Assembly: GCF_010894455.1 (NCBI RefSeq)
Contig: NZ_JAAIXY010000008.1
Span: 62,001-126,000 of the forward strand
Origin: Myxococcus eversor
GTDB lineage: Bacteria > Myxococcota > Myxococcia > Myxococcales > Myxococcaceae
Length of the DNA stretch: 64,000 nt
Reading direction: 5' to 3'
The notes under the pieces are model-generated. The model was not told where the DNA came from. It did no database searches and saw only the letters and a program-made list of their open reading frames with translations. Numbering within the stretch: the stretch's first letter is position 1; every line of letters begins with the position of its first letter. The position numbers and the translations under genes are program-made. This document shows, one piece after another, positions 26,539 through 38,014 of the stretch.

Positions 26539-29430
26539 CTAGGTCTTCACCCCGAGCGTCTTCTTCGCCGCGCGCGAGAGCGTCTTGTCCCCGGCCGCGT
26601 CGGGGATGTCGAGCAGGGCCGCCGCCACCGCCTTGCCCGCGCCGTGGATGTTCTCGTTCGCCAGCTTCAAGTACGTCCCGAAGCGCGTGAGTCGCTCGGG
26701 GTGTGAGCGCGCCGCCTCCAAACGGGCCAGCAACACCTTGGAGAGCGCGTCCGCGGGGAATCGCTCGAACAGATTGCGCAGCGCCTGTCGCTCCAGCGCC
26801 TCTGGCCGAATCTCCGCCAGCCGGACAAGGGGCTCCAGCATCGCCAGCCCGAAGGTCTTGAGCGAGTCGGACACGACGCCCGGCTTCCACCCGTCGACGA
26901 ACGCCGCCAGCAAGGTCTCCGCCCCGCGCACGTCACCCAGCACGCCCAGCGCGTACACCGCCGTCTTCGCCTCCTCATCGTCCGCGTCGCGCGCCTCGAC
27001 GCTGTGCACGTACTTGTCCAGCACCTCCGCGTCTCCCAGCCACGCCAGGGCCATGGCGGCGCGTCGCCGCACCTCGTTGGACGGGTCTCCGTAGAACACC
27101 TGTCGCAGCACCGGCCACGCCTGCGTCAGCCCCAGTCCCTCGAGCTGGTCCACCGCCGCCAGTCGAGCCTCTCGAGTCGGCTCCGACAGTGCCCGCTGCG
27201 CGAGCGGGCGGACTCTTCCCTGTCTCACCTGCGCGAGCGCCGCCACGGACCCAGGGCCAGTCTCCCGGGCCTGGATGTCGTTGAGCACCTCGCGCGCATG
27301 GAGCCGCAACCCCGCGTCGTGGCCCTTGCGAGTCAGTCCGTCCAGCAGCACTCGCGCCTCATGGACACCCAGCTGTCCCAGCACCTGCATGGCGGTGCGG
27401 CGCACCATCCGGCTGTGGTGCTCGGACAGGGCCTGCTTCGTCACCTCCAGCACGCGCTCCGGCGGGCATGACGCCAGCGCCCGGACGACGGCGGTGCTCG
27501 CCGCGCCGTCGCTCCACGCCGGATAGAGCGATTCCAGAAGCGAGTCCGCGCCCAGGCTCGCGTAGTAGTGCGCCGCATGGGCCGTGGCCTCGTAGCGCGA
27601 CAGCTCTCCGCGAGCCCGCTTCAGCAGCGCCTCGCCCGGAGGCAGCGGCGTCTCGGGCTTCCGGATGTGGATGCTCGGGTGCGTGGGCACCGGCTCCAGC
27701 GTGTCGGCCTGGACCTGCGCCGCGCCCGCCAGCCGCACCAGGGCGATGCCGAGCACCTGATACACCTTGATGAAGTCGTCCAGCCGCTCCGCCGCGTCAG
27801 GCCGCTGCGCCAGCGCCTCCAGCAGCGCCCCGGGCTTCTCCAGCCCCAGCTCCCGCAGCCGAGCCACCAGCGGCTCCACCGCGCGAGGTGAAAGCGACGG
27901 CAGGCCATTGGAGAACTTCTCCGCCAGCTCGTCCCGCACCTCGGCCAGGGCGATGGCGGCGCGAGACGCTCCCGCCGCGCGTGCCGCCTCCGCCCACCCG
28001 CTGCGAGGCACCGCCACCGGCGCCTCCGGCCGCGCGCGCCGACGCCGACGCCGCGAGGGCTCCTCCGGCGCTTCACGCAGCCCCAGGCCGCGCAGCTCCA
28101 GCCCGTCCGGAGTCTCCACCACCACCGCGAGCGGAAACAGGGTGGGGAGCGCCGCCTCCAGCCCCACGTCGCCCAACACCACTTTCAGGGTGGCCCCTTC
28201 CAGCGCCGCCGCGAAGGGCTCCTCCAGCCGCGGGTCCGCAGGCAGGAACAGTCCGCGCTCGCCCGAGTCCACCAGCTGCGAGCGCTGTCCGCTCGCCAGG
28301 AGCGTCTGCACGCGCAGCGCCACCGGCAGCAGGTCCGGCGCGAAGACGTCCTTGCGATGCTCCTGGAAGGCCGCCAGCGCGGCCCCCACGTCCGGAAGCG
28401 CCGCCTTCACCAGTTGCCGCAGCGCCGAGTCGTCCTGCGGATGCGTCGTCTTCGTGCTCTCCAAATCCAATCGTCGAGGAGGAAAGCCCGGGTACTGCCC
28501 GCCCTTGGCCTCCTCCAGGATGACGCCCGCGTGACTCTTCTTGGGCTCCACCGTCTTGAGGAACGCGGGGAGGATTTGCTTCTCCGTGAAGTGGGTTCCG
28601 GAGCCCAGCTCCAGGAAGCGGCTCTCCCGGACGAGGAAGTTGTCGGGCGTGACGCGCGTGGTGAACGAATACTCCACCAGCGTCAGTCCCTCGATGGGCG
28701 CCCGGTCCTTCTTCGTCCACGTCTTCCCAATCAGCTCTTCGACGTAGCGGTCCTCCAGCGGCTCTCCGCCCAGGTGCTTCTCCACCTTGCGCGCGGTGAG
28801 CAGCATGTCCGCCACCAGGTCGGTGAAGACGGGCGGCTCGAACGTGCCCGTGCGCGCCGCCGCCTGCTCCAGCAGGGCCGCCACCTCCACCGCGCGCGCC
28901 GCCAGTCGCCGCAGCCCATTGGCGCGCAGCGACTCCGCCAGGGCGCGCACCTGCTCGGCCCGGTCCTCGGAGAGGGACGCCACGCCGGACAGGCCCAGCT
29001 CCCGCACCAGCGTGGACACCTGCGCCACGCCCGCCTTCATCAGCTCGCCCGTCTCCGTCTTCCCCTTCTTCACGCTCTTCTTCGCGGGCCCGCCCGCGCC
29101 CGCCGGAGCCGAGTCGGTGGTGACGAAGGCCTCTGGCGCGCGAGCCCAGGCCACCAGCAGCGCCGCCGCGTGCTTGCAGAACGGCCGCGAGCGCGCGGCG
29201 ACACAGGAGCACCGCCCCTTCACCTCACGCCCGTCCCCGAACACCAGCGACACCTTGTAGGGCGTGGCCCCCGAGCCGAGCGCGTCCGCGAACAGGCGGT
29301 TCTCGAAGCGGGACAGGTGCAGGAGCTGTTTGTCATCGAAGATGCGCGTCCCCTTCGACACCTCCGAGGGGTCGCCGATGATTTCCGTCAGCCCTCCGAC
29401 GCTGGCCACCACCTTGCGTATCTCAGCCAT
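26539..29430 (-). CDS. SWIM zinc-finger protein with HEAT repeats (YehQ-type)
   Basis: 963 residues. A SWIM zinc finger lies near residues 73-90 (GRCSCVAARSRPFCKHAA, pattern CxC-x10-CxH). A long middle region with a charged RRRRRRARPEAP tract follows, then a C-terminal third of HEAT-like repeats (VRRTAMQVLGQLGVHEARVL, VRRRAAMALAWLGDAEVLDK, YALGVLGDVRGAETLLAAF). It is the last gene of a four-gene leftward operon with VWA, DUF5682 and MoxR proteins and overlaps the VWA gene by 8 bases. In E. coli the equivalent is YehQ. The zinc finger may bind nucleic acid or a protein target; role unproven. Confidence 0.88.
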   Translation of the reverse strand: MAEIRKVVASVGGLTEIIGDPSEVSKGTRIFDDKQLLHLSRFENRLFADALGSGATPYKVSLVFGDGREVKGRCSCVAARSRPFCKHAAALLVAWARAPEAFVTTDSAPAGAGGPAKKSVKKGKTETGELMKAGVAQVSTLVRELGLSGVASLSEDRAEQVRALAESLRANGLRRLAARAVEVAALLEQAAARTGTFEPPVFTDLVADMLLTARKVEKHLGGEPLEDRYVEELIGKTWTKKDRAPIEGLTLVEYSFTTRVTPDNFLVRESRFLELGSGTHFTEKQILPAFLKTVEPKKSHAGVILEEAKGGQYPGFPPRRLDLESTKTTHPQDDSALRQLVKAALPDVGAALAAFQEHRKDVFAPDLLPVALRVQTLLASGQRSQLVDSGERGLFLPADPRLEEPFAAALEGATLKVVLGDVGLEAALPTLFPLAVVVETPDGLELRGLGLREAPEEPSRRRRRRARPEAPVAVPRSGWAEAARAAGASRAAIALAEVRDELAEKFSNGLPSLSPRAVEPLVARLRELGLEKPGALLEALAQRPDAAERLDDFIKVYQVLGIALVRLAGAAQVQADTLEPVPTHPSIHIRKPETPLPPGEALLKRARGELSRYEATAHAAHYYASLGADSLLESLYPAWSDGAASTAVVRALASCPPERVLEVTKQALSEHHSRMVRRTAMQVLGQLGVHEARVLLDGLTRKGHDAGLRLHAREVLNDIQARETGPGSVAALAQVRQGRVRPLAQRALSEPTREARLAAVDQLEGLGLTQAWPVLRQVFYGDPSNEVRRRAAMALAWLGDAEVLDKYVHSVEARDADDEEAKTAVYALGVLGDVRGAETLLAAFVDGWKPGVVSDSLKTFGLAMLEPLVRLAEIRPEALERQALRNLFERFPADALSKVLLARLEAARSHPERLTRFGTYLKLANENIHGAGKAVAAALLDIPDAAGDKTLSRAAKKTLGVKT

Positions 29431-30634
29431 GGCGCGACTCCTTGTGGGCGGCCAGCAGCGGCGCCAGGTCCTGGTTGCGCATCACCCGCTCCACCACCTC
29501 CACCAGCCGCTTGGGCGTGCACCCGAAGCAGGGGATGCCCAGCGCGGTGAGCCTCTCCGCCATCGCGTGGTCGTACGTGGGCTGGCCCCCATCCGACAGC
29601 GACAGCAGGCACAGCACCTTCGCCCGCGAGTCCACGAGCTGGCGCAACCGCGCCACCAGCTCCTCCGCGTCGCCGCCCTCATAGAGGTCGGTAATCAGCA
29701 GGAAGAGGGTCTTCTCCGGCCGTTGCACGTGGTTCGCCTGGGCATAGGCCACCGCGCGGTTGATGTCCGTGCCGCCGCCGAGCTGCGCGGTGAACAGCAC
29801 CTCCACCGGGTCCGTGAGGAGCGGCGTCATGTCCACCACCTCCGTGTCGAACAGGATGAGGCGCGTGCGCAGCACATCCAGGGACGCGAAGATGGCCGCC
29901 ATGACGGAGCTGTACACCACGCTCTGGGCCATGGAGCCGGACTGGTCCACCACCAGCGTCACGTCCCACTCATGGTGACGGCGCTGGTTGGGCCAGAAGG
30001 AGAAGCGCTCCGGCACCAGCCGCTTGTGCTCCGCGTCCCAGCCCTTCAGGTTCTGCCGAATCGTGCGCTTCCAGTCGATGTTGCGCGCAATCGGCAGCGG
30101 GCTCGTCCTGTCCCTGCGCAGGGCGCCGAACACGGCCGTGCGGACGGTGGACTCCAGTTTCTTGCGCAGCTCCTCCACCACCTCGCGGACAATCTGCCGG
30201 GCAATCGCCTTCGCCTCGTCGGGGATGAGGCCGCGCGCGCTGACCAGCGTCGTCACCAGCTCCACGTTCTTGTCGAGGAAGGGCAGCGTCTCCGGCTCGA
30301 AGAGGAGCTGGGTGAGCCCCTTCTTCTCGATGGCGTCCTTCTGGACGAGCGCAATCACATCATCGCGGAAGAAGCCGCGCAGCGCGCCGAGCCACTCGGG
30401 GATGTAGGGGCGCGAGCCGGACGAACCCCCGCGCTTGTCGCCGTAGACGAAGGACAGCGCGTCATCCAGCGCCTCCAGGTCCCCCTGGCCCACGCCCACC
30501 GAACTCGCCTGGGCGCCCAGTGCGCGCAGCGAGGGACATGCCCCCGTCTTCTCCGCCATTGGACCGAGCGCGAGCCGCCAGCGCAGCAGCGCATCCCGGT
30601 CCTTCTCCGCCAGCTCCTTGGGGTCCACGCTCAT
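29423..30634 (-). CDS. VWA domain protein (YehP-type) of MoxR cluster
   Basis: 403 residues. The C-terminal half is a von Willebrand factor A domain with an intact metal-binding site: TLVVDQSGSMAQSV (DxSxS), LGGGTDINRAV (Thr) and LFLLITDLYEGGD (Asp). The N-terminal half is helical and family-specific (LGALRGFFRDDVIALVQKD). No signal peptide, so cytoplasmic. VWA proteins in MoxR clusters act as adaptors, presenting substrates to the AAA+ ring. It overlaps the DUF5682 gene by 4 bases and the SWIM gene by 8, consistent with a fixed-stoichiometry complex. Confidence 0.92.
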   Translation of the reverse strand: MSVDPKELAEKDRDALLRWRLALGPMAEKTGACPSLRALGAQASSVGVGQGDLEALDDALSFVYGDKRGGSSGSRPYIPEWLGALRGFFRDDVIALVQKDAIEKKGLTQLLFEPETLPFLDKNVELVTTLVSARGLIPDEAKAIARQIVREVVEELRKKLESTVRTAVFGALRRDRTSPLPIARNIDWKRTIRQNLKGWDAEHKRLVPERFSFWPNQRRHHEWDVTLVVDQSGSMAQSVVYSSVMAAIFASLDVLRTRLILFDTEVVDMTPLLTDPVEVLFTAQLGGGTDINRAVAYAQANHVQRPEKTLFLLITDLYEGGDAEELVARLRQLVDSRAKVLCLLSLSDGGQPTYDHAMAERLTALGIPCFGCTPKRLVEVVERVMRNQDLAPLLAAHKESRHG

Positions 30635-32943
30635 AGCAGGTCATCCAGGTCGTCGAGTGCCTTGCCCAGCTCGGCGCTCATGTCCTTGAGCTTCGCCGTG
30701 TCCTTCTCCTCGAGCACCGTCTTCACGGCCCGCCCCTTCTCTCCGAGCTGGCGCACCGCCACCACGTTCTCCATCAGGTAGCGACGCTCGGTGGTACCCA
30801 GCACGGCCAGTGCCCTCCTCAATACCGGCAGGGTCTGACGGAAGCGCTCCGGGTCGATGCTGGCCAGGAAGTCATCCAGGGCCTTCACCACTTCACGGTT
30901 CTTCACCAGCACCAGCGCGTTGACGCCCAGGAAGCCCTCCAGCCAGGACGCGCCCTCCTCCGGAGCCACCGCCAGCGACAGCCGCAATCCGACGATGGTC
31001 GCCACCTCCGCCTCGCTCAGCTCGTGCGCCAGGTACAACAGCCCCGTGGCCATTCCCGACGTCGCCGGGTGCACGGTGTTGCTGCCCATCAGCTCGCGAG
31101 CCTCCACCAGCCAACCGGCCTTGTCCGCGAGCGGCTGGGACAGCGCCACCTCGTGCAGGGTGCGCAGCGCCTCCGTCACGGAAGGCAGGGCGTCTGGACC
31201 GCAGGCGCAGGACTCGCGCACGCGCAGCAGCGCGCGGGAGAAGGTCTTCTGGCAGAGCACCGTCACCGCCTCGTCGCCCACGTCCGTGTGAGCGCGCGAA
31301 GTGCCATAGGCCACCAGTCCTGACAGCGCGCGAGCCGCCGACGCGAGCGACGGCAGGTCCACGTCCGTGGCCGCGTGCGTGTCACAGGCGCGCAGCGCCG
31401 ACGCCATGGTCTGCGGGCAGCCGGTAATCACCGACTCCAGCAACACCTCCGCTGCCGCGCCCGTGGTCTTCGCCAGGTCCAGTTGCTCTTGGAGGACGCG
31501 GGTCGTCACGGCTTCCAACGAGTCGCCGAGGACGATCTTCTCCACCAGCGCCACGTCCGTGGACGGGGTCCACTGTGCCTGCCAGGACTCGCGAACCCGC
31601 GTCAGCGCGGCCTGTCCTCCGGCCTCTTGTGGCGAAGCGCGCTGCTGTCCCGTGGCGGCCAGCGTCGCATACGGAATCCCGGCCACGCGCAGGCGGTGGA
31701 GGAACACCGAGGAGCCGACCTCCACCGTGTTGTTCAAGCGCAGCGTGAAGGTCTCCGGGCTGTCGGTGCTCGGCAGCCGGCGCGAGTCCAGCTCCCGCCA
31801 GAACTCCGCCTGGAGCGAGTTCTTGCCGATGCGACTGGCCACCCGTCCGACTTGATGACCGACGACGCTCTTCCACAGGAAGGCGTCGACATGCGTCGCA
31901 TCTCCCCGACACAGCGTGGCCACGGTGGCCTCGCGCAGCTCGTCGAGTCCCGGTGCGCTCTTCTCGCGCAGGTCCGCCAGCGTCATCGCCAGCCGGTACG
32001 CCTCCAGCACGTCCGACAGGGACGCGGTGAAGCCGCGCATGCGCAGGTGCGCGGCGAAGTCGATGAGCACCTCCAGCGTCGCGCGCCGGAAGTCGCACTG
32101 GGCCTCGTGGGCCTTCTGGTAGAAGTGCGGCGCCCGATTGCCCGCGCCGTAGCCAAGCTGCTCGGACAGCCGGGGGAAGCTGTACGGAATCACCGTCACC
32201 GCGCAGGGCACGGCCTTGGGCAGCTTCGCCTCCAGCGCGGGCTCCACGTCCCGGGCCAGGAAGGCCGCGATGTGCGCGGCGCCGGCCACCACGGCGACCT
32301 TGTCCGGCGAGACTCCGCTGGCCACCACCTCCAGCACCTTGCGCGCCATGAAGGCATCGCGCCAGCGGTGGTAGTCCTGTCGAGGACCCGCGTTGAGCAC
32401 ATCCGCCCAGGCGAGCAGCACGGGACGGAAGCCCTCGGGCGTCCAGTCGGGCGCCTCGAACAGCGCCTCCCACAGCTCTTCGAAGGAGCGGTAGCCCTGC
32501 TCGCGGGCGAAGCGCTCCGTGAGCGGCTCTTCGTCATGGACGTGCTCGTGACGCTCGGCCTCCGGGACATCCTCGCTCTCGACGCTGGCCGTCTCGGCGT
32601 GGCGGTCCATGCCCAGGCTGACGCCGACGGGGATGTCGATGAACGACGCGCGGGCGCGGTTCACCTTCGCCCAGCGCAGGGCCGCGTACTCGGGAGAGTA
32701 GTCCGCGAAGGGCCACAGCGCCGAGCCCGGGGTGTCATCCGTGCGGTAGCCGAGCAGCGCGATGGGTGGCTTCGTCTCCGAGTCACACAGCACGTCAATC
32801 AGGTCGGAGGCATCACAGGGTCCCTCGATGAGGACGACCTCCGGCTTCACGCGCTCCAGCCAGCGCCCGAGCACCGCCGTGGTGCGCGGCGAGTGGTGGC
32901 GCACCGGGAACAGGTGCACCCGGGAGAGCAGGTCCAGGTCCAT
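30631..32943 (-). CDS. DUF5682 family protein (YehM-type)
   Basis: 770 residues. The N-terminus VHLFPVRHHSPRTTAVLGRW followed by KPEVVLIEGPCDASDLI is the signature of DUF5682, thought to resemble the TraB/ChaN/erythromycin-esterase-like fold with conserved His and Glu. A second conserved region is VVAGAAHIAAFLARDVEP. The rest is largely helical. It is the second gene in the cluster, sharing a single base with the MoxR gene and 4 with the VWA gene. Enzymatic activity is unknown; if the esterase-like site is active it would be the catalytic part of the system. Confidence 0.9.
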   Translation of the reverse strand: MDLDLLSRVHLFPVRHHSPRTTAVLGRWLERVKPEVVLIEGPCDASDLIDVLCDSETKPPIALLGYRTDDTPGSALWPFADYSPEYAALRWAKVNRARASFIDIPVGVSLGMDRHAETASVESEDVPEAERHEHVHDEEPLTERFAREQGYRSFEELWEALFEAPDWTPEGFRPVLLAWADVLNAGPRQDYHRWRDAFMARKVLEVVASGVSPDKVAVVAGAAHIAAFLARDVEPALEAKLPKAVPCAVTVIPYSFPRLSEQLGYGAGNRAPHFYQKAHEAQCDFRRATLEVLIDFAAHLRMRGFTASLSDVLEAYRLAMTLADLREKSAPGLDELREATVATLCRGDATHVDAFLWKSVVGHQVGRVASRIGKNSLQAEFWRELDSRRLPSTDSPETFTLRLNNTVEVGSSVFLHRLRVAGIPYATLAATGQQRASPQEAGGQAALTRVRESWQAQWTPSTDVALVEKIVLGDSLEAVTTRVLQEQLDLAKTTGAAAEVLLESVITGCPQTMASALRACDTHAATDVDLPSLASAARALSGLVAYGTSRAHTDVGDEAVTVLCQKTFSRALLRVRESCACGPDALPSVTEALRTLHEVALSQPLADKAGWLVEARELMGSNTVHPATSGMATGLLYLAHELSEAEVATIVGLRLSLAVAPEEGASWLEGFLGVNALVLVKNREVVKALDDFLASIDPERFRQTLPVLRRALAVLGTTERRYLMENVVAVRQLGEKGRAVKTVLEEKDTAKLKDMSAELGKALDDLDDLL

Positions 32944-34028
32944 CAGCCCCTCAGGAGCTTCTTGCTGGCGGTGTAGAGGTCCTTCCAGGCGCCAGTGCGG
33001 CCCTTGGCGACGGTCTCCATGTACTCGCGCAGGGCCTTCACGTCGTCCTCCTGCTCCTTCACCACGGCGCCCACCAGCGAGGCGGCCAGCTCGTGGGGGG
33101 TGACCTTTCCGCCGCCGAACTGCTCCGCGAGGATGGAGCTGTTGAACAGCACGCTGATGGCCTCCGCGGTGGACAGCACGGCGCCCGGGGTGCGGACCTT
33201 CGTCTTGCCGTCCTTCGTCACGCCCTTGCGCAGCTCCTGGAAGAGCGTGAGCAGGATTCGCGACAGCTCCTCCGGAGGCGGCACGCCGACCTGATAGTCA
33301 TTGCGCAGCTCCGCCTCGCGCTTCGTCACGATCTGGATTTCCTGTTCCAGGTCCTCGACGACGGGGACGGTGACGAAGTTGAAGCGGCGCTTGAGGGCGG
33401 CGCTCATCTCGTTGACGCCCCGGTCTCTCGTGTTCGCGGTGGCGATGAGGTTGAAGCCGCGCTGGGCGCTGACCACCTCGCCCAATTCGGGGATGGAGAC
33501 CTGCTTCTCCGACAGGATGGAGATGAGCGCGTCCTGAATCTCTGGGGACGTGCGGGTGACCTCCTCGAAGCGGGCGAACTTGCCGGTGCGCATGGCGCGC
33601 AGGACGGGGGAGGGGACGAGGGCCTCGGGGGTGGGGCCCTGCGCGAGCAGCAGCGCGTAGTTCCACGAGTACTTGAGGTGGTCCTCGCTGGTGCCGGCGG
33701 TGCCCTGGACGATGAGGGCGGAGGTGCCGCTGACGGCGGCGGCCAGGTGTTCGGACAGCCAGCTCTTCGCGGTGCCGGGCTCGCCCACGAGCATCAGCGC
33801 GCGGTCCGAGGCGAGTGTGGCGATGCAGACCTGGATGAGTCCCTTGTCGCCGACGTACTTGGGCGTAATCGTCACGCCGCCCACGGGTTTGGCGGCGCCG
33901 AGGATGTATGTCTCCACGGCGCGAGGCGACAGCGCCCATCCAGGAGGACGGGGCTTGTCGTCATGGGCGGCGAGGGCTTCCAGCTCGGTCTTGAACTTCG
34001 CTTCGGCGGGCAGTCGGATGTCCGGCAT
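32943..34028 (-). CDS. MoxR-type AAA+ ATPase (YehL-type)
   Basis: 361 residues. Walker A is VGEPGTAKSWLSEH (82-89 core), the Walker-B-like segment is KFARFEEVTRTSPEIQDALI, sensor 1 is LIATANTRDRGVNE and the arginine finger region is SAALKRRFNFVTVP. This is the MoxR/RavA branch of AAA+ proteins, ring-shaped chaperones working with VWA partners. It heads the four-gene operon; the promoter should lie in the roughly 200-base gap shared with the divergent ptuA-like gene. Confidence 0.93.
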   Translation of the reverse strand: MPDIRLPAEAKFKTELEALAAHDDKPRPPGWALSPRAVETYILGAAKPVGGVTITPKYVGDKGLIQVCIATLASDRALMLVGEPGTAKSWLSEHLAAAVSGTSALIVQGTAGTSEDHLKYSWNYALLLAQGPTPEALVPSPVLRAMRTGKFARFEEVTRTSPEIQDALISILSEKQVSIPELGEVVSAQRGFNLIATANTRDRGVNEMSAALKRRFNFVTVPVVEDLEQEIQIVTKREAELRNDYQVGVPPPEELSRILLTLFQELRKGVTKDGKTKVRTPGAVLSTAEAISVLFNSSILAEQFGGGKVTPHELAASLVGAVVKEQEDDVKALREYMETVAKGRTGAWKDLYTASKKLLRG

Positions 34029-34231
34029 GCGTGCAAACTACCGGTTCGGTCTGACACGCCGCAATCCGAGGGGTTGTCTGGGCTGTGGCTCGGAAACCGA
34101 CCTCCGGGAGCGCGAAGCTGGAGCGGTCCTGGTGACGAAGTGCTTCGCCACGAGGCAGCGACGCACGGTGGCTTCACAATGTGGCCACGAGGCGGTTGAC
34201 CCTCTGCGTCGTTTCGGGCGTGCTGCGCGGC

Positions 34232-35551
34232 ATGTACCTGAAGAAAGTCGTCCTCGAGAACATCCGCTCCATCACCGAACTGGAGTGGGAGCCGCCAGCG
34301 GCGCCCTCACTGGCGGGATGGCACGTCATTCTCGGGGACAACGGCGCGGGCAAGAGCTCCGTCCTCCGAGCCATCGCGCTCGCCCTGGTGGGGCCCAGTG
34401 AGGCGATTGCGCTGCGTCAGGACTGGAACGAGTGGCTGCGGTCACGAACCCAGTCAGGTTCGATTCACCTGACCCTGACCTGGGACGAGACGCAGGACTT
34501 CTTCACGGGGAGCGGCAGGCGACCCAAGGCCGCGCATGCGGACCTTGCCGCGGGCCTCAAGCTGGATCGGCCCGAGTCAGAGTCCCCGCATGTCCGCTTG
34601 TCCGCTGCGGCGTCTGGCAACGCGGACCCCAGTCGGAATATCTGGGGAGATGGCCAGGGCTGGTTCGCTGCCTCATACGGTCCTTTCCGCCGCTTCACCG
34701 GGGGCGACAAGGACCAGGAGAAGCTCTTCTATTCAAACCCCAAGCTTGCCCGCCATTTGTCTGTCTTCGGGGAGTCTGTAGCGCTCTCGGAGTGCTTGGA
34801 ATGGCTCAAGCTTCTTGAATTCAAGCGACTGGAAGGCGGACCCGAAGGCGCGCTGTTGGAGCCACTGAAACAGTTCGTCAACCAGCCCGACTTTCTGCCG
34901 AACGAAGCCCGCTTGGAGTCCATCTCCTCGAATGGCGTGCGCTTCGTCGACGGCAATGGCTGCGAGGTTCCTGTCGAGAACCTGAGCGATGGATATCGCT
35001 CCATCCTGAGCATGACGTTCGAGCTCATCCGCCAGCTCGCGAAGACCTACGGTGCCGGGAAGCTTTTCGCTCTGAATGATGCGACGACCGTGCGCGTTCC
35101 GGGCGTCGTCCTCATCGACGAAATCGACGTGCACCTGCACCCCACCTGGCAGCGCCGCGTGGGTCAGTGGTTCCGCAAGCACTTCCCCTTCATCCAGTTC
35201 ATCGTCACTACGCACAGCCCGCTCATCTGTCAGGCCGCGACGGTGGGAAGCATCTTCCGGCTTCCGCAGCCGGGGAGCGATGATTCGGGTGGCATGGTCA
35301 CCGGCCTCGCGAGGGACCGACTCCTCTATGGGAACGTGCTGGACGCCTACGGAACGGGCGTCTTTGGAGATATCTCCACGCGTTCACCGGAGGCGCTCGA
35401 ACAGCTCGAACGCCTCGCCGTGCTCAACCAGAAAGAGTTGGCCGAAGGGCTCAGCGACGACGAGCGTACGGAGCAGCAGACATTGCGCGCTCGGACCCCC
35501 ACGTCCGCGAGTGCCTTGCCTGCCCCCGACGTGAAGGACCTGCTCAAGTGA
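34232..35551 (+). CDS. ptuA: PtuA-like ATPase of a Septu-type defence system
   Basis: 439 residues from the ATG at 34232 (the open frame starts 51 bases earlier). YLKKVVLENIRSITELEW opens a RecF/SMC-type ATPase; Walker A is VILGDNGAGKSSVLRAI, the signature loop VENLSDGYRSIL, Walker B VVLIDEIDVHLHPTWQRR and the H-loop FIVTTHSPLICQ. The stop overlaps the GTG of the HNH nuclease gene (GTGA), the usual arrangement of Septu PtuA-PtuB. In known systems PtuA assembles and controls PtuB. Codon use looks less strongly GC3-biased than in neighbouring operons, which may mean transfer (visual impression). Confidence 0.88.
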   Translation: MYLKKVVLENIRSITELEWEPPAAPSLAGWHVILGDNGAGKSSVLRAIALALVGPSEAIALRQDWNEWLRSRTQSGSIHLTLTWDETQDFFTGSGRRPKAAHADLAAGLKLDRPESESPHVRLSAAASGNADPSRNIWGDGQGWFAASYGPFRRFTGGDKDQEKLFYSNPKLARHLSVFGESVALSECLEWLKLLEFKRLEGGPEGALLEPLKQFVNQPDFLPNEARLESISSNGVRFVDGNGCEVPVENLSDGYRSILSMTFELIRQLAKTYGAGKLFALNDATTVRVPGVVLIDEIDVHLHPTWQRRVGQWFRKHFPFIQFIVTTHSPLICQAATVGSIFRLPQPGSDDSGGMVTGLARDRLLYGNVLDAYGTGVFGDISTRSPEALEQLERLAVLNQKELAEGLSDDERTEQQTLRARTPTSASALPAPDVKDLLK

Positions 35552-36357
35552 TTCGCCTGCCGGACAGCCCGTTGTCGGCCGATGCGCTAAAGGGCCTCGC
35601 GGAGCACCAGCGGGCCATCGATTCGCTGCCGGACTACGCGGAGCGTGTGGCGAGCGCGAAGAAGAGATTCTCCTCGGTGAACAAAGTCGGCAATCCCACC
35701 TTCGATGACGTCAAGGCGACGCTGACGAGGATGTGTTCCGGAGCGCGCCGCTGCGCCTATTGCGAGGACTCGTGTGCGGACGAAGTGGAGCACATCCGCC
35801 CGAAGTCGCTGTATCCCGAGGTCGTCTTCGCGTGGATGAACTACCTCTACGCGTGCGGCATCTGCAATCTGCACAAGAATGACCACTTCGCGGTCTTCGC
35901 CGAGGACACGGGACTCCTCACCAGCGTGCAGCGTACGTGGAAGGCGCCAGTCGTGCCCCCCATCGTGGGCACGCCCGTGTTCATCGACCCGCGCATCGAG
36001 GACCCGACCGAGTTCCTGTCCCTCGACCTGCGGGACACCTTCTGGTTCCTTCCACGCGCAAAGCCGGGGACCGTCGAACATGCTCGCGCCGAGTACACGA
36101 TTCGCGAGCTCCGATTGAATCTGCGCGACATCCTGCCCAGTGCGCGACGCGACGCCTATCTGGACTACCTCAATCACCTCAAGGTCTACGTCCACGACAA
36201 GTCACAGGGCATGCCGCAGGCTCACCTCGACATGTTTGCAGGGCGGTTGAGAGCGCGTCAGCACCCCTCGGTCTGGTTCGAAATGAAGCGTCAGCACGCG
36301 CTCATCGGAGAGCTGCTACTGCCCTTCTCCAAGGCGCCCGAAGCACTCGACTGGTGA
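35548..36357 (+). CDS. ptuB: PtuB-like HNH endonuclease of a Septu-type defence system
   Basis: 269 residues, GTG start inside the ptuA stop. The HNH site is visible: CAYCEDSCADEVEHIRPKSL (zinc CxxC and the first catalytic EH), then WMNYLYACGICNLHKNDHFA (Asn and CxxCNxxK). This layout matches the retron/Septu-associated HNH family (TIGR02646), which cleaves nucleic acids upon phage infection. The rest is helical, with FIDPRIEDPTEFLSLD in the middle as in the family. It ends 6 bases before the convergent small secreted-protein gene. Confidence 0.9.
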   Translation: MIRLPDSPLSADALKGLAEHQRAIDSLPDYAERVASAKKRFSSVNKVGNPTFDDVKATLTRMCSGARRCAYCEDSCADEVEHIRPKSLYPEVVFAWMNYLYACGICNLHKNDHFAVFAEDTGLLTSVQRTWKAPVVPPIVGTPVFIDPRIEDPTEFLSLDLRDTFWFLPRAKPGTVEHARAEYTIRELRLNLRDILPSARRDAYLDYLNHLKVYVHDKSQGMPQAHLDMFAGRLRARQHPSVWFEMKRQHALIGELLLPFSKAPEALDW

Positions 36358-36363
36358 CGTGCC

Positions 36364-36834
36364 TCACTCCGCGCACGGAAACGAGGTGTCCAGCGTCTTG
36401 CTCCCGTTGATGCCCGGGCCCGTCAGGGTGACGACCACCTTCACGGCGGAAGAGCACTCGTAGGGCAGCAGGAAGGGCACCGTCGTCTCGCCTTTCTCCG
36501 CGAGCGCATGCAGCTCACGCGTCTGCGTCACCTTCCACGCGCGCCGCGAGCCCGCCTCCGACTCCTCCTTCGGCGCGCTCACCACGAGCTTCAGCTTCAG
36601 CGGCTTGTCCCCCTCGTAGGTGCCCTGCACCTTCACCAGCAGCAGCGCGTCCACGTTCATCCCATACGGGTCCGCGGCCTCGTCCGTCGTGACGATGGAG
36701 GCCTTCTGCCGGTCGAAGACCCGCAGCACGACTCCTCCCAGGGACACGCTCGGAGCGCTCGCGCTCCCGGCGGTGGAGGACAGCAACAGGACACCACTCA
36801 CGAGCAGCGAGAGCAGCTTCGTTCGCGACGACAT
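36364..36834 (-). CDS. Small secreted hypothetical protein
   Basis: 156 residues from the ATG at 36834, preferred over the GTG six bases earlier because ggagg then sits 5 bases upstream. Signal peptide LLSLLVSGVLLLSSTAGSASA with an Ala-x-Ala end. The mature part is all-beta in character (VSLGGVVLRVFDRQKASIV, LLLVKVQGTYEGDKPLKLKL) and has two cysteines near the C-terminus (YECSSA, SFPCAE), possibly a disulfide. I do not recognise a family. It is convergent with the HNH gene. Confidence 0.8.
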   Translation of the reverse strand: MSSRTKLLSLLVSGVLLLSSTAGSASAPSVSLGGVVLRVFDRQKASIVTTDEAADPYGMNVDALLLVKVQGTYEGDKPLKLKLVVSAPKEESEAGSRRAWKVTQTRELHALAEKGETTVPFLLPYECSSAVKVVVTLTGPGINGSKTLDTSFPCAE

Positions 36835-37033
36835 CTCCACCTCCGGAAACCGTCAGGTCACATCCGCCGCGCGACTGTACGCCAGCCTGGTGTCCTCCCG
36901 TGCCTGTAAGGCGAGCATGAGGCCGTGCCCTGGCTCGGGGCTTCGTCACTCCGACTGCAATCCGCCCCGCCCATGCCCAGCCTGCGGAGGAACCCTGTCC
37001 GACGCGGGCCTCCACCCGCGAGGAGCCACTTCC

Positions 37034-38014
37034 ATGAAGACCTCCGTTCCCTCTCAGATGAAGGCCGCCGCCATCGACCGTTTCGGCGGACCGGAAGTAC
37101 TCGGCACCAAGACGGTGCCCGTCCCCCAGGTAGGCCCCGGTGAGGTGCTCATCCAGGTGGAGACCGCTGGCATCGGCCAGTGGGACCCCGCCGAGCGCGC
37201 GGGCGAGATGGAAGGCTACAAGCCGGGCAGCAAGGCCTCCTTCCCATACGTGCTCGGCACGGATGGCGCGGGCACCGTCGTGGCCCTGGGCGAAGGCGTC
37301 AAGAACCTCAAGGTCGGTGACAAGGTCTACGCCTTCGGCTTCCTGAACGAGAAGGGCGGCTTCTACGCGGAATACACCGCGGTGAGGGCCGTGGACACCG
37401 CGCTCGTGCCCAAGGGCTTGAGCGCGGAGCAGGCGGGCGTGCTGGCGGCGGATGGAATCACGGCCCTCCAAGGCGTGGAGGACACCCTCAAGGTCGGCCA
37501 GGGCACCACGCTGCTGGTGTACGGCGCGAGCGGCGGCGTGGGGCACCTCGCGGTGCAGCTCGCCAAGCGGCTGGGTGCGAAGGTCCTCGCGGTGGCCTCC
37601 GGTGCGGACGGCGTGGAGCTGATGAAGAAGCTCGGCGCGGACAAGGCCGTGGACGGCCGCTCCGACGACGTCGCGAAGGCGGTGCGGGACTTCGCCCCGG
37701 ATGGCCTCGACGCGGCGCTGGTGCTCGTGGGTGGAGACAAGGTGGACGAGCTGCTCAAGGGCGCCGTGAAGAAGGGCGGCCACATCGCGTACCCCAACGG
37801 CGTCGAGCCCGCGCCCAAGGGCGCCGATGGCATCAAGGCGACCGCCTACAACGGCGAGGCGAACCCCAAGGTGCTCGGCCGCCTCAACAGCCTCATCGAG
37901 TCCGGCCCCTTCCACGTGGAGATATCGAAGGTCTACCGCCTGGATGACGTCCGCGGCGCGCACGAGGCCGTGGGCAAGCACCACCTGGGCAAGCTGGCCC
38001 TGCGCATCAACTGA
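37034..38014 (+). CDS. Zinc-independent quinone oxidoreductase-like / NADP-dependent alcohol dehydrogenase
   Basis: 326 residues from the ATG at 37034, with gaggag 10 bases upstream. N-terminal GroES-like domain (MKAAAIDRFGGPEVLGTKTV, VLGTDGAGTVVALGEGVKNL) and Rossmann domain with TLLVYGASGGVGHLAVQLAK. The Cys/His zinc ligands of alcohol dehydrogenases are absent, so it belongs with QOR/enoyl-reductase-like MDR enzymes, reducing quinones or activated C=C bonds with NADPH. Single-gene transcription unit followed by a strong hairpin. Confidence 0.92.
   Translation: MKTSVPSQMKAAAIDRFGGPEVLGTKTVPVPQVGPGEVLIQVETAGIGQWDPAERAGEMEGYKPGSKASFPYVLGTDGAGTVVALGEGVKNLKVGDKVYAFGFLNEKGGFYAEYTAVRAVDTALVPKGLSAEQAGVLAADGITALQGVEDTLKVGQGTTLLVYGASGGVGHLAVQLAKRLGAKVLAVASGADGVELMKKLGADKAVDGRSDDVAKAVRDFAPDGLDAALVLVGGDKVDELLKGAVKKGGHIAYPNGVEPAPKGADGIKATAYNGEANPKVLGRLNSLIESGPFHVEISKVYRLDDVRGAHEAVGKHHLGKLALRIN

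What the first reader, a model, noticed from the sequence alone, without database searches (positions are those of the whole stretch)
34232..36357. Septu-type PtuA-PtuB defence pair
An SMC-like ATPase with all motifs is followed through a GTGA overlap by an HNH nuclease of the retron/Septu family. No reverse transcriptase or msr/msd RNA is visible, so it is a stand-alone Septu rather than a retron.
Basis: partly seen in the sequence, partly recalled or inferred. Interest (0 to 1): 0.6.

Follow-up and report, generated by a model that had tools for sequence, protein, structure and literature searches.

The report
Ordinary stand-alone Septu (PtuAB) phage defence
A myxobacterial genome carries a normal two-gene Septu anti-phage system, an ATPase plus a nuclease, in a small cassette that close relatives lack at the same spot; it is a new copy of a known kind.

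Summary
ptuA (34232-35551 +, 439 aa) and ptuB (35548-36357 +, 269 aa) overlap by 4 bases. They match PADLOC PtuA1 (544.8 bits, near full length) and PtuB1 (369.4 bits, full length). The ATPase and HNH residues are invariant in the homologues aligned, and predicted folds match Septu and retron I-A PtuAB complexes. No reverse transcriptase lies on the window's contig, no Rfam match occurs in the window, and PtuA is 439 aa against 550 aa in Eco7. NCBIfam retron-PtuB and Pfam HNH models match below their cut-offs.

Added here: in the closest relative the spot is empty. Flank homology stops at 34102 and resumes at 36356, so the insert is ptuAB plus a ~130-base leader. Among 11 genomes where both flanking genes lie within 10 kb, 5 carry ptuAB between them, 4 are empty and 2 hold other sequence. 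The genome holds a second pair (60%/49%). New member of a known kind; whether this branch cuts tRNA or DNA is unknown.

The parts
34232..35551 (+). ptuA: ABC/SMC-type ATPase, 439 aa
   Evidence: PADLOC PDLC00269 PtuA1 544.8 bits, residues 1-429; fold matches chains of PtuA complexes, e.g. 8eea_D E = 3.5e-16
34334..34360 (+). Walker A GDNGAGKSS (PtuA residues 35-43)
   Evidence: G35, N37, G38, G40, K41, S42 identical in 22 of 22 aligned rows
35105..35122 (+). Walker B VVLIDE (PtuA residues 292-297)
   Evidence: D296 and E297 identical in 22 of 22 rows
35548..36357 (+). ptuB: HNH nuclease, 269 aa, GTG start overlapping the ptuA stop by 4 bases
   Evidence: PADLOC PDLC00340 PtuB1 369.4 bits, residues 1-269; the nine best fold matches are 205-234-residue chains of Septu or retron I-A complexes
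35752..35877 (+). HNH/zinc region of PtuB (residues 69-110: CxxC, H82, N98, CxxC-N, K110)
   Evidence: residues identical in 22 of 22 rows and 16 of 16 rows
34103..36355 (.). stretch absent from the close relative G004 (ptuAB plus leader)
   Evidence: flank homology ends at 34102 and resumes at 36356
34029..34231 (.). intergenic leader between the divergent MoxR-like gene and ptuA; promoter presumed here
   Evidence: gene positions; no promoter scan was run

Best explanation
This is a stand-alone type I Septu system. Shown here: a two-gene ptuA-ptuB cassette with intact ATPase and HNH motifs, no retron parts found nearby, and presence or absence at one chromosomal site. Inferred from studied Septu and retron I-A systems (partly recalled): PtuA forms ATP-binding oligomers that carry and restrain PtuB. 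Phage infection releases the restraint, and PtuB's HNH site then cuts a nucleic acid so that infection aborts. For the target I favour host tRNA (as for Septu EcB88 and Eco7 PtuAB) slightly over nicked DNA (as reported for the ATCC 25922 Septu), at about 55 to 45. No data here decide that.
For: PtuA1 544.8 bits and PtuB1 369.4 bits. Motif residues invariant. Fold matches to 8eea (E. coli Septu PtuAB) and retron I-A complexes. The HNH spacing H82-N98 (16 residues) equals H75-N91, the residues needed in Septu EcB88 PtuB (passages of PMC13096335). No RVT_1 hit on contig C113 or C124; the three hits lie on C43, C30 and C47. In 13 of 13 relatives' genomes no RVT_1 hit shares a contig with a PtuA hit. 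A cassette of about 2.25 kb is missing in G004, and ptuAB fills all but about 130 bases of it. G+C of ptuAB is 63.2% against 68.6% for the window.
Against: NCBIfam PtuA, PtuB and TIGR02646 (retron) models and Pfam HNH models score below their curated cut-offs. The PtuA model is of middling quality (mean pLDDT 77.6), and the five PtuB models differ widely in confidence (90.1 down to 61.5; the best was used). The fold matches have TM-scores of only 0.42-0.58 over the query, with about 20% identity and large rmsd (nine PtuB matches; the 50 listed). Several contigs in the RT check are short (4.7-19 kb), so absence of a nearby RT there is weak. No activity, expression or target data exist.
Confidence: 0.93

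Rival explanations
1. It is the effector half of a type I-A retron whose RT and msr-msd lie elsewhere in the genome and act in trans.
For: PtuAB is shared with retron I-A, and three RVT_1 proteins exist elsewhere in the genome.
Against: The RTs are on other contigs; no Rfam match in the window; PtuA is 439 aa against 550 aa in Eco7, its residue 2 aligning to residue 65 there, though that stretch scores only 7.1 bits; no RT hit shares a contig with a PtuA hit in 13 of 13 relatives.
Confidence: 0.03
2. It is an accessory of the neighbouring MoxR-DUF5682-VWA operon rather than an independent defence cassette.
For: Divergent, 203 bases apart; five of 11 genomes with both flanking genes within 10 kb carry ptuAB there, and three further genomes carry it 3.4-7.9 kb from MoxR on the same side.
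Against: The MoxR gene stands without directly adjacent ptuAB in 13 of 18 genomes, and in 12 of 13 named loci no MoxR match lies in the stored flank (flanks up to 6 kb, some shorter, and one of these twelve, L014, has it 7.9 kb away).
Confidence: 0.03
3. It is a decayed remnant, no longer active.
For: A relative (L009, Myxococcus vastator) has ptuB split between two frames, so loss of function may occur in the family.
Against: Both window frames are intact and the motif residues are kept.
Confidence: 0.04

Closest known systems
Septu type I, E. coli (PDB 8eea, 8ee4, 8sux; Septu EcB88)
   Same: Two genes, ABC ATPase PtuA plus HNH PtuB, no RT; fold matches; same H-to-N spacing in the HNH motif (passages)
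   Different: About 20% identity in the structure alignments; target and trigger in this branch untested; different host group
Retron I-A / Septu type II (Eco7/Ec78, Ec83)
   Same: Homologous PtuA and PtuB
   Different: No RT on the contig and no Rfam match in the window; PtuA 439 aa against about 550 aa; below the NCBIfam cut-offs for the retron PtuA and PtuB
PADLOC PDLC00269 / PDLC00340 subfamilies
   Same: Near full-length PtuA match and full-length PtuB match
   Different: Nothing noted

Membership tests
Septu type I | PtuA: ABC-type ATPase with Walker A, signature, Walker B and His motif | tested here: met
Septu type I | PtuB: HNH nuclease of the PtuB family with H and N residues kept | tested here: met
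   PADLOC 369.4 bits; H82, N98, N107 invariant; fold. Pfam HNH below cut-off
Septu type I | ptuA and ptuB adjacent in one operon | tested here: met
   4-base overlap here; 19 of 22 rows read show the same overlap; 9 of the 31 loci given were skipped because the match was on the reverse strand
Septu type I | No reverse transcriptase gene beside ptuAB | tested here: met
   RVT_1 hits only on C43, C30, C47; the window is in C113
Septu type I | Anti-phage activity needing both enzymes | not testable with these tools
   needs a phage assay
Retron type I-A (Septu type II) | RT gene next to ptuAB | tested here: not met
   PADLOC defines type II by a preceding RT (passages of PMC8565338)
Retron type I-A (Septu type II) | msr-msd RNA | tested here: inconclusive
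   no Rfam match at gathering score in the window; msr-msd types outside Rfam would be missed
Retron type I-A (Septu type II) | NCBIfam retron PtuA and PtuB cut-offs | tested here: not met
   110.9 of 500 and 35 of 150 bits

The most novel reading that the evidence does not exclude
The stretch between the MoxR-DUF5682-VWA operon and the dehydrogenase gene is a swap site where a bare ptuAB cassette is gained and lost at the same place by recombination in shared flanks, without any mobile element. It would give a natural set of paired strains with and without Septu.
Probability: 0.35. Interest if true: 0.35.

Novelty: new member of a known kind. Interest (0 to 1): 0.15.

Why it matters
It is one more Septu, in a myxobacterium. 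Whether myxobacterial Septu has been studied I cannot say: the one search for it found 166 papers, and the 15 listed deal mostly with cell division and polarity, because the term also matches 'septum'. The use is practical. Close relatives with and without the cassette at one site, and two divergent ptuAB pairs in one genome, are a handy set for asking whether different Septu branches cut tRNA or DNA, on which published work differs (passages).

Tried and rejected
Rejected: retron with an RT nearby. One suspicion came from contig numbers (an RT seemed to lie beside the L013 Septu). The ORFs of L013, a tblastn of the genome's three RTs against the loci and the contig check (PtuA on C28, RT on C35) showed it was a different contig.

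Rejected: ptuA and ptuB partner swapping in G005. FastTree trees and identities and sliding identities suggested it, but an AU test does not reject the PtuB grouping for PtuA (p = 0.201), so it is not shown.

Not settled: gain or loss at the site. At least 3 changes of occupancy are needed on the MoxR tree over 11 genomes; the tree cannot tell direction. Identities of ptuAB track the flanking genes only loosely: some pairs fit old presence with losses, but PtuA of G000 is about as close to G019 (79%) as to G005 (81%). The lower G+C would fit acquisition.

A PADLOC scan of ten neighbouring proteins gave only two weak hits (27.2 and 14.8 bits), so no defence island is shown; not every protein of the window was scanned. 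Phage and plasmid searches: 7 phage records, none covering 80% of PtuA and all under 60% identity; 100 plasmid records, all under 60% identity, 32 covering at least 80%.

Full report
What is there. The window is G000:C113:62001-126000 in an 11.4 Mb, 124-contig genome. Three genomes of its own genus group have the same PtuA contig, coordinates and score as genomes reached through named loci: G015 = G061, L009, Myxococcus vastator; G012 = G066, L014, Pyxidicoccus fallax; G019 = G071, L019, Myxococcus sp. RHSTA-1-4. So the genus is a Myxococcus/Pyxidicoccus group (inference).

Family. PADLOC gives PtuA1 544.8 bits over residues 1-429 and PtuB1 369.4 bits over 1-269; the tool shows no PADLOC cut-offs. 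NCBIfam retron models match below cut-off: PtuA 110.9 of 500, TIGR02646 39.3 of 52.15, PtuB 35 of 150. Pfam: AAA_21 at 86.1 bits is above its cut-off for PtuA; the HNH models for PtuB are below theirs (HNH 14.8 of 21.4; HNH_5 15.2 of 27.5). The best PDB sequence matches are retron I-A PtuA, with E. coli Septu PtuA (8ee4) also found, for the ATPase, and retron-type PtuB/TIGR02646 chains for the nuclease (the E. coli Septu PtuB chain was not among its nine matches).

Motifs. In one search, 31 loci were given; 22 were read and 9 were skipped because the match was on the reverse strand. The 22 rows include two repeats of the same genome (L009/L024, L014/L026), and ptuB of L009/L024 is read only to the frame break. 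In all 22, PtuA keeps G35, N37, G38, G40, K41, S42, D253, G254, D296, E297 and H328, and PtuB keeps C69, C72, H82, N98, C103, C106, N107 and K110. In 19 of 22 the two genes overlap by 4 bases; in the other three (L020, L036, L037) the PtuB match begins 2 to 10 bases after the ptuA stop. Alignments of 17 PtuA and 16 PtuB sequences chosen from these agree.

Fold. The best PtuB model has mean pLDDT 90.1 (the other four 86.8 to 61.5). Its nine best PDB matches are 205-234-residue chains of retron I-A or Septu complexes, several of them named PtuB or HNH, and the tenth match has E = 4.5. The PtuA model is fair (77.6); the 50 listed matches, of 202 with E up to 0.001, are all chains of Septu or retron I-A structures. 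TM-scores are moderate (0.42-0.58 over the query), so this supports the family and gives no detailed geometry.

Retron or not. The genome's three RVT_1 proteins are on contigs C43, C30 and C47, the Septu pairs on C113 and C124. In 13 of 13 genomes behind the named loci no RVT_1 hit is on a contig with a PtuA hit, though several contigs are short. No Rfam family reaches its gathering score in the window. This PtuA is 439 aa against 550 aa for Eco7 PtuA; residue 2 aligns with residue 65 there, in a weak stretch of 7.1 bits, so the N-terminal extension of the retron form appears to be missing. By PADLOC's rule, where type II is ptuAB preceded by an RT (passages of PMC8565338), this is type I.

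The site. Upstream, divergent, is a MoxR-like AAA gene (32943-34028), then DUF5682 (30631-32943), VWA_CoxE (29423-30634) and a HEAT/SWIM gene (26539-29430). Downstream, after a small reverse-strand ORF (36364-36840), is a zinc-type dehydrogenase gene (within 36620-38014). At E up to 1e-60 the MoxR gene occurs in 18 of 27 genomes of the genus and the dehydrogenase in 23 of 27. In 11 of the 18, counting the window's own, the two lie within 10 kb on one contig: 5 hold ptuAB between them (G000, G005, G013, G009, G014), 4 have only about 350-390 bases between the matches (G004, G025, G003, G008), and 2 have other sequence and no ptuAB (G016, G011). Of the remaining 7, three hold ptuAB 3.4, 4.6 and 7.9 kb from MoxR (G020, G019, G012) and four show none in the 15-17 kb fetched, though two of these (G002, G026) have PtuA relatives elsewhere. 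Against the nearest relative G004 (flank DNA about 95% identical) homology stops at 34102 and resumes at 36356. The missing 2,253 bases are ptuAB and its leader, which leaves no room for an integrase or transposase. The other empty sites break at 34079-34112 and resume at 36363. On the MoxR tree both states occur within three small clades, needing at least 3 changes. G+C of ptuAB is 63.2% against 68.6% for the window and 70.0% for the MoxR operon.

Mechanism. [quoted passage not shown] The structural paper behind the last claim was not held; that PtuA oligomers restrain PtuB and respond to ATP is recalled. The residues that matter in EcB88 have counterparts here, with the same H-to-N spacing, so abortive cutting of a nucleic acid by PtuB under PtuA's control is the best reading. 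The target in this branch is open.

Verdict. The finding is correct and ordinary. The only additions are the cassette boundaries, the filled/empty pattern, and a second, diverged pair in the same genome.

Noticed in passing
26539-34028 (-): Four-gene operon: MoxR-like AAA, DUF5682 (425.7 bits), VWA_CoxE and a HEAT/SWIM protein. It recalls MoxR-vWA conflict-type systems; PADLOC gives only one weak hit among the four, to PDC-S62 (27.2 bits), and the main text of PMC7159879 does not mention DUF5682 or SWIM (term search).
   Followed up: partly
G000:C124:65694-67819 (L002, L004, L057): A second ptuA-ptuB pair in the same genome, 60% and 49% identical to the window's pair.
   Followed up: partly
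L009 7308-8115 (Myxococcus vastator): ptuB is split between two reading frames, a broken gene or a sequencing error.
   Followed up: no
L042 (G005): Among eight genomes PtuA of G005 is nearest to G019 (82%) but its PtuB is nearest to G013, G009 and G014 (74%); the tree test does not prove an exchange (p = 0.201).
   Followed up: yes
L046 and L047, between the MoxR and dehydrogenase genes (coordinates as oriented: L046 1191-10267, L047 1149-5257): Two relatives carry other sequence in this interval instead of ptuAB; in L046 a LysR-type regulator, an aldo/keto reductase and a 635-aa protein (names by eye, not from a search). In L047 the extra 3 kb lies beyond the small reverse ORF, not at the ptuAB point itself.
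   Followed up: no
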